From an uncultured bacterium (GTDB taxonomy: Bacteria; Patescibacteriota; Minisyncoccia; Phycocordibacterales; UBA6065), in the NCBI GenBank assembly GCA_903842365.1, contig CAIMLU010000052.1, forward strand, positions 1-37,907: a DNA stretch of 37,907 bases. The letters run 5' to 3'. Of the stretch, positions 1,831 through 12,258 are shown in pieces. Made by a program: the position numbers and the translations under genes. How positions within the stretch are numbered: the stretch's first letter is position 1; each line of letters begins with the position of its first letter. The notes under the pieces are model-generated. The model had not been told where the DNA came from, searched no databases, and worked only from the letters and a program-made list of their open reading frames with translations.

Positions 1831-4800
1831 ATGGATATATTTAAACGTATTCGCACTACTTTGTTTTTAATTTTGGTTAGCTTCCTGTTTTTTCTTTGCG
1901 GTAACGTTGGTGCTGAGGTTAATAATCCGTACGTGGTTGATTATAAATCACGGGTTACTTTTGGTGATAGTTCTGAGGTTGACGGGTATAAAGGTCTTGA
2001 AAATTATCAAGCCCAGTATATTGATGAGTATCTTCACTTGTCGTATACCATAACGCACGGACAACAATCATGGGCAAGTTTTCCGCCGTACCTTTATTTT
2101 TTTGGTGATGATCCAACGGTGCCACCCGGTATAGGTGCATTTACGGTTGGTTCTGCAGATCTCACGAGTTCCTATTGGAATCCAACTGATTACTATTTTG
2201 TCAATATACAATTTTCACGGAATGGGTACCGTACGATTGTGACACGGGGGAGAGATAAGATTCCTTTTTCAGATAACACTAGTTCAATAGACGGTATTAC
2301 TGATGATGTTTTTGTTGCGCTTGCTAATTATGCAACGGGACAGAATGAACACTCGATGGCGTTCCAACCCATGCGTATTGTGGAAGTTGCCCCATCTAAG
2401 TTTATTTCTTTTAATGTCAGTACGACAACTAGAACTGCTTTAGTTGAGACATATATTGCGCCGAAGGATATGGGTGCTTGGGTACATTTCACTATCTCCG
2501 ATTCTTCTGAAAATCTTGTCTTTTCGGGTAGTCCAGTGATTGCTACTACTTCTGGGGTGTCCACAAATGTATGGCAATTTCCTGAAGTTGCGAACACAAA
2601 AACAACCCAGTCGCAGACTTTTTATGCGCACATAGATTTGGTGTATGGGTCTACAACATTACGTACGAAAGATGTCGGTGTTACGTTTACTCCTACAAAA
2701 GAGGGGTATCCAGGGCACTCTAATTCCGTAGATAGCACATCAGAATATATAGATTATGCTGCCCAAACATTGGGGACAAATCTGTCGGGAACACTTACTC
2801 AGATTGATATTACAACAAGTAATATTGCTGCTATTTACTATGGCTCAAGACCAGTTATTGATTTATTTGAGTGTGAAAATGATACGTATGCAGGGTTGCC
2901 TCTTTTGGGAGGAATAGGTCCTGGAAGTGGTTGCACGATCATTTTTTCTGATGTATCAGGTGAGGCAAGTGGTCTTTCTACAAGCACTCAACATTTTTAT
3001 ACTCCCCCTATTATTTTTAACCCTTCAAAATACTACTTTTTTAGAGTGAGGGGTAATAATTTGCTTAACATTTTACCGATTTACTACGGGAGCTCTGAAG
3101 ATAAGGTTGATGGTGCATGTTACCGTCTAAACTATTCCAATGGACAAGCTGTTCCTTGTTCAACGATTTCTGATCTGTCTTTCTATTTACGAGGTGTGAC
3201 CAAAACAGTGTCTAATCCTCTGTGTACCGAAAACTGCAACTCAAACATCATGTTCTTTCCTGGAATCATGGGATCACGTTTGTATGATAGCGAGGAGAAA
3301 GAGCTGTGGGTTTCAAGCGGTGATTCTTTGCAAGCAAAACTCTCTTTGGATGAGACTGGAAAAAGTAATAATGTGATATACATCAAGGATGATACGTTGA
3401 GAAAAGAGGGGGAGGTAGATGAAAAGGGTATTGTGGATGATGTGTATGGCTCAAATATTTATGAATCGTTCATTAATGATTTACGTACATGGAAAGGAGA
3501 CGGAACCAATGGCATTATTCATGATTACGCCCTCATTCCTTATGACTGGCGCCTCTCTCTTAACGATATCGTAACGAACGGCGCCACATCAACCCAAGAC
3601 AATCTATCGTACGCAACGCCACAGGATTTTTCACAATCTTATATAGTAAAGCAATTGGAACAGCTTCAAAAATCGTCTCGAACCGGCAAGGTCGCTATTG
3701 TCGCACACTCAAATGGTGGTTTTGTTACAAAAGCCCTTATTCAAAAACTCAAAGACACGAACAATCCTCTGTATAACAAAATAGACAAGGTAATTTTTGT
3801 TGCAGTACCACAGGTGGGGACTCCGGAGGGTCTTACTGCTTTGCTTCATGGAACAAGTATGGGTCCCTGGGGTAGCGTTATGATCAACGCTCGCTCGCGT
3901 GACCTTGCAAAAAATATGCCAACTGCCTATAACCTCCTTCCATCATCTGATTATTTTAGTATCGTCGATCCTGGTTTTGCGGTTGATAAAGTAGTGTCAT
4001 TCCAAAATACTCATGCTTTTGATCGACAATTATTACAGTATGGAATGTTCATTTCAAATGAAGATGAATTCAAGCGATATGTTTTAAATGATGAGGGGCG
4101 AGCAATTCCAACCTACGCAGACACCACATACCCTGCCACGGGTAATCGTGCCCTCTATAACATGGCCGAGACCGTTCACTCTGTGCTCGACAATTGGCTT
4201 CCTGCATCAACCACAAAAGTAGTCCAAGTCGCGGGATGGGGAGAGGAAACGCTTGCTGGTATTGATTATACCAACACTGGCAGACTATCTTTAAAGCTCA
4301 GGAATGTTGTTGATGGTGACGGTACGGTTGTGGTGCCGAGCGCTCTTTGGATGTCGACTTCGACTCCAAATGTAGAGAGGTGGTGGGTGGATTTGAAGAC
4401 TTACTCAGATAAGAATTTGTTTTCAAGAGTTCATAAAGACATCCTCGAAATTCAAAACCTCCGTACTTTCATCAAATCCCAAATCAACAACTCTCCATTT
4501 AGTGATTCTGAAAATATCGTCGTCAATTCCACACAAACCCTCATATCAGATGGCGAGCGCCTCCACTTTACCCTCCACTCACCTTTAACCCTCGGCATCA
4601 CCGACTCATCTGGTCGCTATACCGGACTTGATTCTGTAACAGGAAAAGTGCGTGAAGAAATCCCAGGAGTAACCTACAAACAGTACGGGGAAGTGCAATT
4701 CCTCTCGGTTCCAGCGGGTCTCGAGTACACCGTAACTATGAAAGGCTATGAAAGTGGTAGTTTTGACTTTGACGTAGAGAAACAGGCCGGTAACGCTGTG

Positions 4801-5826
4801 ATTGCATCAACTACTTTTGAATCTATACCAAGTGCCACCTCAACAACAGTAACTCTAAACGTTTCTTCTCTATTCTCTGTAAGTAGTTCAACCTTGTTTA
4901 TCGATCAAAACAGTGACGGTACACCTGATATATCTCTCAAAGCCAATGAAAGTGGTGTAACGGTCTATGACACTACTTCTCCAACGATCACAGTAAATGC
5001 AGATGGAACCCTTGGTATGAATGGTTTCTACACTTCTCCTGTAACCATTACTTTCACCGCAGATGATCCTATGAAAGAGGGCGAGGTTTCTTCGGGTGTA
5101 GCTTCGACTACCTATTCGTTCGATAGAGGAATTACATGGAATACTTACAGCACGACTTCTCCTCTTCTTATCACTGCTCAAGGAACGACAACGATTCAAT
5201 ATTACTCTCTCGATAACAATGGTAATCAAGAGAAGACAAAAACGCTCACGTTCACCATTGATACCATTTCTCCGGTAGTTGTTATTACAACTCCAAATCA
5301 ATTGATCTACACCCATAGCGACACCATTCCGCTCTCTATTACTTCAACTGATGACGGAGGTGTTGCTTCAACCACAATTACTGTAAATGGTAGGGAAGTT
5401 GCAGACAATTCAGTCGACCTCTTCTTCCAAAGACTTGGAACGACAATGGTTTCAGCCTCTGTATCTGATATGGGTGGAAACACCTCTTCAGCAAGTACGT
5501 CATTCCGCATCATCGCCACCGCCTCCTCGACAATCTCCGACATCACCCGTGCCTTCACCTTGGGCTGGATCACTAAAGAAAACATCAAAGACACCCTCAT
5601 TAAAAAGATTGAAAAGATGGTAAAGCTTGAAACAAAGATTGATATCGTTACAGAAATCAAGAAAGGGAAGAAGGCAGAGAGGCATATTGAACGAATTGAA
5701 GAGAGGGTAGATAAAACCTTAGCAAAAGCACTTCTTCTCGACCTTAAAGCTTACGAGCGATCAAAGATTAATGAACGAGCATATACCCTTATCAAGGGAG
5801 ATGTTGAGTGGCTCATTAATTATTAA
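1831..5826 (+). CDS. Large secreted LCAT/PDAT-like alpha/beta hydrolase (lipase/acyltransferase-like) with C-terminal Ig/OmpL47-like repeats and charged coiled-coil tail
   Basis: 1331-aa ORF; N-terminal signal peptide (RTTLFLILVSFLFFLCGNVGAE); FFPGIMGSRL, YDWRLS, nucleophile elbow VAHSNGG, GTPEG, VDGDGTVVVPS and HKDIL as in LCAT-type hydrolases; repeats ending TISPVVVI / TTSPTITV. Confidence 0.75.
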   Translation: MDIFKRIRTTLFLILVSFLFFLCGNVGAEVNNPYVVDYKSRVTFGDSSEVDGYKGLENYQAQYIDEYLHLSYTITHGQQSWASFPPYLYFFGDDPTVPPGIGAFTVGSADLTSSYWNPTDYYFVNIQFSRNGYRTIVTRGRDKIPFSDNTSSIDGITDDVFVALANYATGQNEHSMAFQPMRIVEVAPSKFISFNVSTTTRTALVETYIAPKDMGAWVHFTISDSSENLVFSGSPVIATTSGVSTNVWQFPEVANTKTTQSQTFYAHIDLVYGSTTLRTKDVGVTFTPTKEGYPGHSNSVDSTSEYIDYAAQTLGTNLSGTLTQIDITTSNIAAIYYGSRPVIDLFECENDTYAGLPLLGGIGPGSGCTIIFSDVSGEASGLSTSTQHFYTPPIIFNPSKYYFFRVRGNNLLNILPIYYGSSEDKVDGACYRLNYSNGQAVPCSTISDLSFYLRGVTKTVSNPLCTENCNSNIMFFPGIMGSRLYDSEEKELWVSSGDSLQAKLSLDETGKSNNVIYIKDDTLRKEGEVDEKGIVDDVYGSNIYESFINDLRTWKGDGTNGIIHDYALIPYDWRLSLNDIVTNGATSTQDNLSYATPQDFSQSYIVKQLEQLQKSSRTGKVAIVAHSNGGFVTKALIQKLKDTNNPLYNKIDKVIFVAVPQVGTPEGLTALLHGTSMGPWGSVMINARSRDLAKNMPTAYNLLPSSDYFSIVDPGFAVDKVVSFQNTHAFDRQLLQYGMFISNEDEFKRYVLNDEGRAIPTYADTTYPATGNRALYNMAETVHSVLDNWLPASTTKVVQVAGWGEETLAGIDYTNTGRLSLKLRNVVDGDGTVVVPSALWMSTSTPNVERWWVDLKTYSDKNLFSRVHKDILEIQNLRTFIKSQINNSPFSDSENIVVNSTQTLISDGERLHFTLHSPLTLGITDSSGRYTGLDSVTGKVREEIPGVTYKQYGEVQFLSVPAGLEYTVTMKGYESGSFDFDVEKQAGNAVIASTTFESIPSATSTTVTLNVSSLFSVSSSTLFIDQNSDGTPDISLKANESGVTVYDTTSPTITVNADGTLGMNGFYTSPVTITFTADDPMKEGEVSSGVASTTYSFDRGITWNTYSTTSPLLITAQGTTTIQYYSLDNNGNQEKTKTLTFTIDTISPVVVITTPNQLIYTHSDTIPLSITSTDDGGVASTTITVNGREVADNSVDLFFQRLGTTMVSASVSDMGGNTSSASTSFRIIATASSTISDITRAFTLGWITKENIKDTLIKKIEKMVKLETKIDIVTEIKKGKKAERHIERIEERVDKTLAKALLLDLKAYERSKINERAYTLIKGDVEWLINY

Positions 5827-5839
5827 AATTTAATCTAAT

Positions 5840-6244
5840 ATGAAATATATAGAAAAAGTGTTGGGGTTGTTGACGAGAAAAAAAGTGTTATATTTTGGGA
5901 TTATAAGTCTGAGTATATTTTTTCTCTCGTATTACAGTCGAGAAATTGGATTGCCTTCATCATATGAAAAGTTTTGCTGTCTCGATGATAGAATATTTAA
6001 CCTATTTACTATAACTATTCCTGTGTGTATTTTTTCCATTATTTTTTTTAAGAATAATGGTTTTGAGAAATGGAAAAAATTTACTTTTATTTACTTATTT
6101 ACTTATTTACTTATTTACTTAATTGTGCCAACTCAAGGTGATGGGCTGATTTGGCTTCAAAGAGAAACGGTATCGTTTTTCGGAGTGATTGTATATTCAT
6201 TAATTTCGATCTTACTTATCTCCTACAAATCTCTCAAAAAATAA
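5840..6244 (+). CDS. Small multi-TM membrane protein, unknown function
   Basis: 134 aa with about 4 hydrophobic segments; homologous to the frameshifted copy at 6570-6987. Confidence 0.6.
   Translation: MKYIEKVLGLLTRKKVLYFGIISLSIFFLSYYSREIGLPSSYEKFCCLDDRIFNLFTITIPVCIFSIIFFKNNGFEKWKKFTFIYLFTYLLIYLIVPTQGDGLIWLQRETVSFFGVIVYSLISILLISYKSLKK
6097..6120 (+). repeat. Octanucleotide simple sequence repeat (TTTACTTA), about 4 units, inside ORF 5840-6244
   Basis: tttacttttatttacttatttacttatttacttatttacttaattg. Confidence 0.85.
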
Positions 6245-6245
6245 A

Positions 6246-6559
6246 CAGCAAATAATATCAGCACCATCTCCGACATCAATCGTACCTTCATCTTGGGCTG
6301 GATCACTAAAGAAAACATCAAAGACATCCTCATTAAAAAGATTGAAAAGATGGTGAAGCTTGAGACAAAGATTGATATCATTACAGAAACCAAGAAAGGG
6401 AAGAAGGTAGAGAGGCGCATTGAACACACCGAAGAGAGAATAGACAAAACCCTTGCAAAGGCACTCCTTCTCGACCTTAAAGCTTACGAGCGATCAAAAA
6501 TTAATGAACAGGCGTACAACGTGATTAAAGAGGATGTTGAATGGCTTATTAACAACTAA
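6246..6559 (+). pseudogene. Second copy of the lipase C-terminal coiled-coil tail (possible 88-aa ORF from TTG at 6293)
   Basis: TISDINRTFILGWITKENIKDILIKKIEKMVKLETKID... nearly identical to residues 1235-1331 of the 1831-5826 CDS; no plausible ATG. Confidence 0.65.
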
Positions 6560-6569
6560 AACTAAACAT

Positions 6570-6987
6570 ATGATATTAAAAATGGATTGGTTAACGAAAA
6601 AGAGGGCGATGATAATTTCGCTTGTCGGTGCACTTAGTTCAAGTTTTGTACTACAAAAGGATATTAACCATTTTCTTTTTTTATCCTGCAGGAATGGAAA
6701 AATTGAGTGGATTAGTGAATGTTTAAGTCTTAAAAATTATTCCATTCTGTTGCTTATAATAGGGGCAACTACCTTTGTTCCCGTTCTCGTTATGTATTTC
6801 TTAAAAAATAATGTTTTTGAATCTTGGAAAAAAACTTTACTTATTTACTTATAGGGATTTTTGTTCCATGGCATGGGGGAGATGCTTATTTACGTATCCA
6901 GAAAGATATAATCGCTATGGGTTTTTCAGTGTTGTACTTAATCTTCTCCTTACTCTTCATTTCCTACAAATCTCTCAAAAAATAAAC
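6570..6987 (+). pseudogene. Second copy of the small membrane ORF, frameshifted at an octanucleotide repeat
   Basis: N-half ...FLKNNVFESWKKTLLIYL* in one frame, C-half GIFVPWHGGDAYLRIQKDIIAMGFSVLYLIFSLLFISYKSLKK in another; both halves match ORF 5840-6244. Confidence 0.75.
6836..6853 (+). repeat. Same octanucleotide repeat, about 2 units, at the frameshift point of the second membrane ORF
   Basis: aaaaaactttacttatttacttataggg. Confidence 0.85.
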
Positions 6988-7137
6988 AGCAAATAATATC
7001 AGCACCATCTCCGACATCACCCGTACCTTCACCCTGGGTTGGATCTCAAAAAAACAGTAAAGGATGAACTTGTCGCAAAAGTGCAACAAGCAATCAAACT
7101 CGAAAAGAGAATTGATTTCATTAAGAAGAAGCTTTTA

Positions 7138-7175
7138 CAACAAAGGCCGGCACGCGAAGCGTGCCGGCCTTTTGC
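7138..7175 (+). terminator. Strong hairpin AAAGGCCGGCACGC gaa GCGTGCCGGCCTTTT
   Basis: Perfect inverted repeat followed by T-rich sequence; truncates tail copy C. Confidence 0.8.
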
Positions 7176-7214
7176 TGTTTTCAAACCCAACCTCGACACC
7201 AAGAACAGTTGCGC

Positions 7215-7442
7215 CCACGTGTAGTGGGGGGGTCAGGTGTGGGGAATCAAACCTTATACTACACAGATGATTCATGCCTCTGTGCTGCAGCGAAACATGC
7301 AGGAGCAACCATTCCAGATAATATGACGTACATAACTTCTCCAAGTCGAAGTTTATATGAGGGTTCTGCTAAAAAAGGAATCACTTCACAGCGTCAAATT
7401 GGAGCAAGTGGAAGCTTCACTATCTCCACAATCTCTCATTAA
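7215..7442 (+). pseudogene. LCCL-domain-like remnant
   Basis: GNQTLYYTDDSCLCAAAKHAGATIPDNMTYITSPSRSLYEGSAKKGITSQRQIGASGSFTIS resembles the LCCL pattern (YtdDSsiCrAAiHaG ... Y.Gs.rnGi.S); no convincing start, G7 tract at a frame change. Confidence 0.55.
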
Positions 7443-11300: not shown

Positions 11301-11532
11301 TTGAGGTATTTTTTTGCTCGGGATTACCAAGGGTTTATTTGGTTTTTAATAGAAAGGAAAAAAAAAGGAAGTGCCTCCATAAATCCAGTCAACACACCGG
11401 TTGACACACACCACTTTATATGCCAATATCACAACCGGATTTTCTTTCACAAAACCGTGGTTTATATACGTTTTAAAACAACGTAGAGACACCACTCATC
11501 ACTCAACAACCAAACCAAAAAGAGGTTTTATT

Positions 11533-12258
11533 GTGACTACTACATCTACCCGTCAGCAAAGGCTGTTTTATAACACCTGGAAAGAAGCCGGGTCTGCAGC
11601 ACAGAAGCTTGGGATCAAGAGTTCTATCGAGTATCAGAAACGGTACCGCGAAGACCCTCAATTGCCGAGTGCTCCCGATGTGGTCTACCCAGACTTCCCG
11701 ATGTGGAATGTGTTTTTGAACACTGGTCGAAAAGCGTATGTTAAAAATCCATACACAACTTGGAAAGAAGCTGGTGTTGCAGGAAATAGGCTTGGAATTA
11801 AGGGTTATTCTGAGTATCAAAAACGATGCCGCGAAGACCCTCGATTACCAAGCACTCCTTGGCAATTCTATCCAGACTTCCCGGGGTGGAGTGTGTTTTT
11901 GAACACTGGTCGAAAGACTCGGATTCAAAATCCATACACAACCTGGAAAGAAGCATCCGTTGCAGCACAAGGGCTTGGGATCAAGATTTCCACTGAGTAT
12001 CCGGAACGGTACCGCGAAGACCCTCGATTACCGAGTAATCCTTGGAGTTTCTACTCAGACTTCCCAGGATTTAAAACCTTTCTTAATACCGGTTTCTACA
12101 CCATCTGTGCTGAAGCATCCGCTGCAGCGCAGAAGCTTGGGATCAAGAGTCAACGTGAGTACCACAAACGGTACCGCGAAGACCCTCGGTTACACAGCGC
12201 TCCTCAAACGTTCTACCCAGACTTCCCGGGATTTAAGAAGTTTTTAGAGAAGGAGTGA
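11533..12258 (+). CDS. Protein made of four about 60-aa tandem repeats resembling the phage-integrase repeat unit
   Basis: Repeat consensus Y-TW-EA--AA--LGIKS--EY-KRYREDPRLPS-P--FYPDFPGF--FLNTG four times; GTG start at 11533 preceded by aagagg; ORF track start (11401 TTG) looks too early. Confidence 0.65.
   Translation: MTTTSTRQQRLFYNTWKEAGSAAQKLGIKSSIEYQKRYREDPQLPSAPDVVYPDFPMWNVFLNTGRKAYVKNPYTTWKEAGVAGNRLGIKGYSEYQKRCREDPRLPSTPWQFYPDFPGWSVFLNTGRKTRIQNPYTTWKEASVAAQGLGIKISTEYPERYREDPRLPSNPWSFYSDFPGFKTFLNTGFYTICAEASAAAQKLGIKSQREYHKRYREDPRLHSAPQTFYPDFPGFKKFLEKE

What the first reader, a model, noticed from the sequence alone, without database searches (positions are those of the whole stretch)
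5533..7130. Tandem duplication of a lipase-tail + membrane-protein module
Anchors atctccgacatc recur at 5533, 6266 and 7007 (offsets 733 and 741). Each unit carries the coiled-coil tail of the secreted lipase followed by a small membrane ORF; a third partial tail ends at a GC-rich hairpin. The tails are still closely similar in protein, including EWLINY/EWLINN ends. This suggests a recombination-active cassette attached to a surface hydrolase, perhaps tail or partner switching.
Basis: seen in the sequence. Interest (0 to 1): 0.7.

Follow-up and report, generated by a model that had tools for sequence, protein, structure and literature searches.

The report
Lipase locus with spare immunity-like cassettes
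A small-genome, probably candidate-phylum bacterium carries a secreted fat-cutting enzyme followed by spare copies of the enzyme's end piece, each joined to a different small membrane protein, an arrangement that recurs across its order and resembles the spare toxin/antidote cassettes of known bacterial weapons.

Summary
The repeat is real. The tail of an LCAT-family lipase (1831-5826) recurs headless at 6263-6559 and, truncated, at about 7003-7128. The first two copies are each followed by a small membrane protein (TM1 5840-6244; TM2 6570-6985, frameshifted). It is not a plain tandem duplication: tails 1 and 2 are 84% identical in protein, TM1 and TM2 only 31%. Related loci show the same contrast (97% vs 27%, 95% vs 43%, 77% vs 26%), with tails unrelated to this one. 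In 297 genomes of the order, 65 of 80 hits of this membrane family lie downstream of an LCAT lipase on the same strand and none in another orientation nearby. Partner divergence tracks the lipase domain (Mantel r 0.62), hardly the tail. Many array members are closer to proteins of other loci than to their neighbours, and orphan partners in sister species are under purifying selection. Best reading: a secreted lipase effector, a membrane immunity-type partner, and orphan tail+partner cassettes left by recombination, working like CDI/Rhs orphan modules or the staphylococcal TslA/TilA lipase system, but unrelated to them in sequence. Anatomy and recombination are shown; the immunity function is inferred. 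New variant of a known kind.

The parts
1831..5826 (+). Secreted LCAT-family lipase, 1331 aa: hydrophobic N-terminus (signal-peptide-like), alpha/beta-hydrolase domain with AHSNGG nucleophile motif, OmpL47-type/Ig-like modules, C-terminal helical tail
   Evidence: PF02450 LCAT E=2.7e-9; OmpL47-type domain E=3.4e-18; AHSNGG
5530..5823 (+). Tail 1: ~98-residue C-terminal helical domain of the lipase; the repeated module
   Evidence: 86% nt direct repeat; four helices predicted, pLDDT 74
5840..6244 (+). TM1: 134-aa multi-pass membrane protein, family TM-A, intact; cognate partner of the lipase (immunity-type, inferred)
   Evidence: TM-A family found in 44-48 of 297 genomes, next to LCAT lipases
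6087..6121 (+). 8-bp simple repeat (ATTTACTT, about 4 copies) inside TM1; unit not a multiple of three, so a possible phase-variation site
   Evidence: only such repeat in the window; background of 4 repeats of this size in 578 kb
6218..6262 (+). End of TM1 plus intergenic junction, nearly identical to 6959-7003
   Evidence: part of 96-nt repeat D2, 91%
6263..6559 (+). Headless tail 2: 84% aa identical to tail 1, no ATG start, frame open without stops
   Evidence: dN/dS 0.146 versus tail 1
6570..6985 (+). TM2: second TM-A gene, frameshifted at about 6834-6851; 31% aa identical to TM1 and closest to an orphan TM-A of genome G285
6959..7003 (+). Second copy of the TM-end/intergenic junction
   Evidence: repeat D2
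7003..7128 (+). Headless tail 3: truncated and diverged, with a stop codon
7142..7172 (+). Terminator-like hairpin closing the array (14 pairs)
7161..7442 (+). ORF with remnant of an LCCL domain (7212-7397), a further decapitated 3' end
   Evidence: PF03815 E=8.4e-7

Best explanation
The locus is a secreted lipase effector with its membrane-bound immunity-type partner (TM1), followed by orphan cassettes (headless lipase tail + another partner) left by, and usable for, homologous recombination at the tail. Shown: the lipase and TM-A proteins form a conserved gene pair; the pair is followed in many genomes by further partners preceded by headless lipase tails; tails are much more alike than partners; partners follow the lipase domain rather than the tail; lipase bodies exchange tails. 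Inferred: TM-A sits in the cytoplasmic membrane and neutralises the lipase at the outer face; the orphans protect against lipases of relatives; recombination between tails swaps which partner stands behind the lipase, or takes in a new lipase while leaving the old tail and partner behind.
For: (1) Pairing: 65/80 TM-A hits lie within 6 kb downstream of an LCAT gene on the same strand, 0 near one in another orientation; 41 of 44 TM-A genomes have LCAT against 101 of 297 overall, Fisher p 5e-19. (2) Tail vs partner aa identity within arrays: window 84/31, G268 97/27, G018 95/43, G285 77/26. (3) Headless tails precede second or third partners in about ten arrays with unrelated tail families; in G062, G110 and G290 (weakly G043) the headless tail matches another locus' lipase better than its own. 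(4) Partner distance tracks lipase-domain distance (Mantel r 0.62, p 2e-4; 0.60 given tail class), tail class barely (partial r 0.14, p 0.06). (5) 18 of 33 array TM-As have a closer relative in another locus. (6) G043 and G117 share an ordered array; orphan TM2 pN/pS 0.28/0.80, like lead TM1 0.27/0.72. (7) A partner family without detectable homology, TM-B, takes the same place, and one array mixes TM-B, TM-A, TM-B. (8) Window tails dN/dS 0.146: not an old neutrally decaying duplicate.
Against: No biochemical evidence that the lipase is toxic or that TM-A binds or inhibits it. At least 20 further LCAT lipases of the order have no small multi-pass protein next to them and many sit beside a ribosomal-protein gene, so LCAT lipases are not in general partnered. 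The Mantel signal partly reflects shared descent. In CDI/Rhs the duplicated piece is the toxic domain; here it is a non-catalytic tail, so tail homology alone does not load a new toxin. TM2 is frameshifted, so the orphan may be dead in this genome.
Confidence: 0.62

Rival explanations
1. TM-A is a lipase-dedicated export, folding or anchoring factor (like a lipase-specific foldase) rather than an inhibitor; extra copies are spare or variant chaperones that switch lipase specificity or surface display.
For: Strict gene pairing downstream of the lipase and co-variation with the lipase domain suit any dedicated partner.
Against: Foldases are not known for orphan arrays. Two partner families without detectable homology, plus further small multi-pass proteins behind other LCAT genes, occupy the same place, and many LCAT lipases lack any partner. 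Extreme partner divergence with conserved tails is typical of immunity genes.
Confidence: 0.2
2. Ordinary tandem duplication followed by fast divergence of the membrane gene, with no exchange between loci and no function for the extra units.
For: Units lie head to tail at 733 and 741 nt, and two of the junctions are nearly identical. In some arrays (G018, G135, G032) the TM-As of a genome are closest to each other.
Against: Tail/partner identity contrast up to 97/27; 18 of 33 array partners closer to another locus; mixed TM-A/TM-B arrays; foreign headless tails; orphan partners under constraint across species.
Confidence: 0.1
3. The tail+TM cassettes are a partner-switching (antigenic or phase variation) device: the lipase is constant and the membrane partner is exchanged by recombination between tails and switched on or off by slippage at simple repeats.
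For: Near-identical junctions, an 8-bp repeat in TM1, and three frameshifted TM-A genes (window TM2, G285 TM3, G117 TM1) whose break falls in a simple repeat. In the Kerfeldbacteria locus two partners differ in the N-half and are identical over the last 120 nt.
Against: No population data; frameshifts in metagenome assemblies at simple repeats can be sequencing or assembly errors; does not by itself say what the partner does.
Confidence: 0.15

Closest known systems
Orphan cdiA-CT/cdiI and rhs-CT/rhsI modules (CDI, Rhs; PMC3150448)
   Same: Full-length gene + immunity gene, then an array of headless 3' fragments without start signals, each followed by another immunity-type gene; fragments begin near a module boundary where full-length genes also switch; orphans match full-length genes elsewhere.
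   Different: Here the conserved repeated piece is a non-catalytic tail and the enzyme domain is upstream of it; no CdiA or Rhs scaffold domains found; the partner varies more than the fragment.
TslA/TilA, type VII-secreted lipase toxin and immunity lipoprotein (PMC10730906)
   Same: Lipase domain upstream of a C-terminal helical domain; several non-identical immunity genes at the locus, shuffled by recombination across a conserved stretch.
   Different: TilA is a lipoprotein (DUF576), not a multi-pass membrane protein; TslA is T7SS-exported with small helical partners, whereas this lipase has a signal-peptide-like N-terminus; no sequence relation found.
LCAT family (PF02450)
   Same: The lipase domain passes the Pfam cut-off.
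   Different: Embedded in a large surface protein with swappable tails and a paired membrane protein; no curated family covers the tail or TM-A.

Membership tests
LCAT (PF02450) | Profile match above curated cut-off and Ser nucleophile motif | tested here: met
   37.2 bits vs 21; AHSNGG
CDI/Rhs orphan toxin-immunity modules | Headless 3' fragments of the upstream gene, each followed by a small immunity-type gene | tested here: met
   window and about ten further arrays
CDI/Rhs orphan toxin-immunity modules | CdiA/Rhs scaffold and variable toxin domain C-terminal to a fixed motif | tested here: not met
   lipase domain lies upstream of the repeated tail; no such domains in Pfam scans
CDI/Rhs orphan toxin-immunity modules | Small protein neutralises the cognate toxin | not testable with these tools
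   needs expression assays
TslA/TilA | DUF576 lipoprotein immunity and T7SS helical partners | tested here: not met
   TM1 has no Pfam or NCBIfam match and is multi-pass
FIMAH C-terminal domain (PF22888) | Profile match of the tail | tested here: not met
   no Pfam hit for the window tail; no profile-profile similarity with FIMAH-like lipase tails
Simple tandem duplication | All parts of the unit similarly alike | tested here: not met
   tail 84% vs TM 31% aa

The most novel reading that the evidence does not exclude
Patescibacteria-type bacteria use secreted LCAT lipases as rivalry weapons, with a previously undescribed membrane immunity family kept in recombination-reloadable, possibly phase-variable arrays in which the shared tail, not the toxic domain, is the recombination joint.
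Probability: 0.4. Interest if true: 0.8.

Novelty: new variant of a known kind. Interest (0 to 1): 0.62.

Why it matters
It points to a widespread, undescribed lipase/partner system with orphan immunity-like arrays in tiny-genome bacteria thought to live on other cells. If the partner is an immunity protein, it gives a handle on how such bacteria attack or compete and how they avoid self-harm, and a case where a non-catalytic tail serves as the exchange joint.

Tried and rejected
Pfam, NCBIfam and PADLOC gave no family for TM-A, TM-B or the tail. Tail as FIMAH domain: not supported. TM-A and TM-B as one family: not supported. Tail model against PDB: nothing below E 0.28. TM1 folded without an alignment: low confidence, mean pLDDT 62, not searched further. 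Literature searches found no paper on LCAT lipases paired with membrane immunity proteins in these bacteria; subscription papers are not covered. The window's genome was not available as a file. Simple-repeat phase variation stays a side observation (3 of 3 frameshifted TM-As, small number).

Full report
Observation. The three anchors are exact and unique in the window. The repeat 5530-5829 / 6263-6562 is 86% identical, and a second repeat joins the end of the first membrane gene to the start of the next tail (6218-6313 / 6959-7054, 91%). The upstream gene 1831-5826 encodes a 1331-aa LCAT-family lipase directly behind a 23S-5S rRNA locus. Its tail recurs headless; the frame of copy 2 is open but lacks an ATG. 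The genome (813 kb, 66 contigs, 99% complete) has no other copy of this tail.

Not a plain duplication. Tails 1 and 2 share 84% of residues, TM1 and TM2 only 31%. The tails diverged with dS 0.54 and dN 0.079, so both spent most of their history under purifying selection. A headless copy drifting since an old duplication would have far more amino-acid changes, so tail 2 was probably decapitated recently, or is still constrained. The lipase is a mosaic: residues 466-1145 match the G285 lipase at about 61-63%, whereas residues 1145-1332 match the Kerfeldbacteria and G126 lipases, whose catalytic domains are only ~22% identical to this one. The repeat unit begins at the start of the helical tail.

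The same architecture elsewhere. A Kerfeldbacteria contig (L005) shows lipase-tail, membrane gene, headless tail, membrane gene; its two membrane genes differ in the N-half and are identical over the last 120 nt to the contig end (the contig ends inside this repeat, so its true length is unknown). A profile of TM-A finds it in 44-48 of 297 genomes of the order. 65 of 80 hits lie downstream of an LCAT gene on the same strand, none near one in another orientation, and several of the remaining 15 lie at contig ends. Every complete long upstream gene lacking the strict serine motif that I scanned was still LCAT by Pfam. Second and third TM-As are preceded by headless tails in the window, G018, G285 (twice), G062, G043, G268, G117, G110 and G290, and a TM-B/TM-A array stands in G201. 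The tails fall into unrelated clusters, so the arrangement arose repeatedly.

What travels with what. Across 32 pairs, partner divergence follows lipase-domain divergence (Mantel r 0.62) and hardly tail class (partial r 0.14, p 0.06). The window lipase shows this directly: its tail belongs to a cluster otherwise seen with SMGG/STGG-type lipases, most of them with TM-B partners, but its body and its partner are of the SNGG/TM-A kind. Eighteen of 33 array TM-As have a closer relative in another locus; window TM2 is closest to the third TM-A of G285. G043 and G117 keep the same ordered array although their lipases are only 48% identical; lead and orphan TM-As show equal constraint (pN 0.27-0.28, pS 0.72-0.80) and the headless tail less (pN 0.43, pS 0.87). 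So orphan partners are maintained while headless tails are looser.

Mechanism. Established parallels are CDI/Rhs orphan modules, whose fragments lack start signals while the immunity genes stay functional (PMC3150448), and S. aureus TslA/TilA, a lipase with a C-terminal helical domain and several recombining immunity genes (PMC10730906). By analogy I propose that the lipase acts on membranes outside the cell, TM-A protects the producer's membrane, and orphan TM-As cover variants made by relatives. Recombination between tails can remove intervening units and bring an orphan TM-A behind the lipase, or import a lipase with its own tail and partner. The TM-A consensus suggests N-in/C-in with two outside loops, the first often carrying a cysteine pair; this is read from hydropathy only. 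Function is inferred, not shown.

Limits. Forty-seven further LCAT loci without TM-A or TM-B and with enough flank were inspected: 16 have another small multi-pass protein next to them, and many of the rest lie beside a ribosomal-protein gene with no partner, so only part of the LCAT family has this organisation.

Noticed in passing
window 6087-6121 and 6834-6851; L119 9097-9112; L136 3816-3823: Simple repeats (8-bp, 4-bp and poly-G) sit in TM-A genes; the three TM-A genes found frameshifted all break inside such a repeat, suggesting phase variation or assembly error.
   Followed up: partly
window 7161-7442: Remnant of an LCCL domain right after the array terminator, probably the 3' end of another lost surface-protein gene.
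   Followed up: partly
window 11401-12258: ORF made of repeated ~60-residue units (KEAGSAAQKLGIKS...YREDPRLPS...FPDFPGF).
   Followed up: no
L162, L167, L169, L177, L182-L186, L189, L194, L200: A partner-less class of LCAT lipase genes lies just upstream of an ORF that looks like ribosomal protein L10 (rplJ) in many genomes of the order; named by eye, not by a profile.
   Followed up: no
L178, L193, L203, L205, L208, L209 and L029/L030: Many contigs of related genomes end or begin inside or next to the lipase gene, as expected if such loci carry repeats that break assemblies.
   Followed up: no
L158, L160, L161, L166, L188 and others: Other small multi-pass membrane proteins, not matched by the TM-A or TM-B profiles, stand directly behind LCAT genes.
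   Followed up: partly
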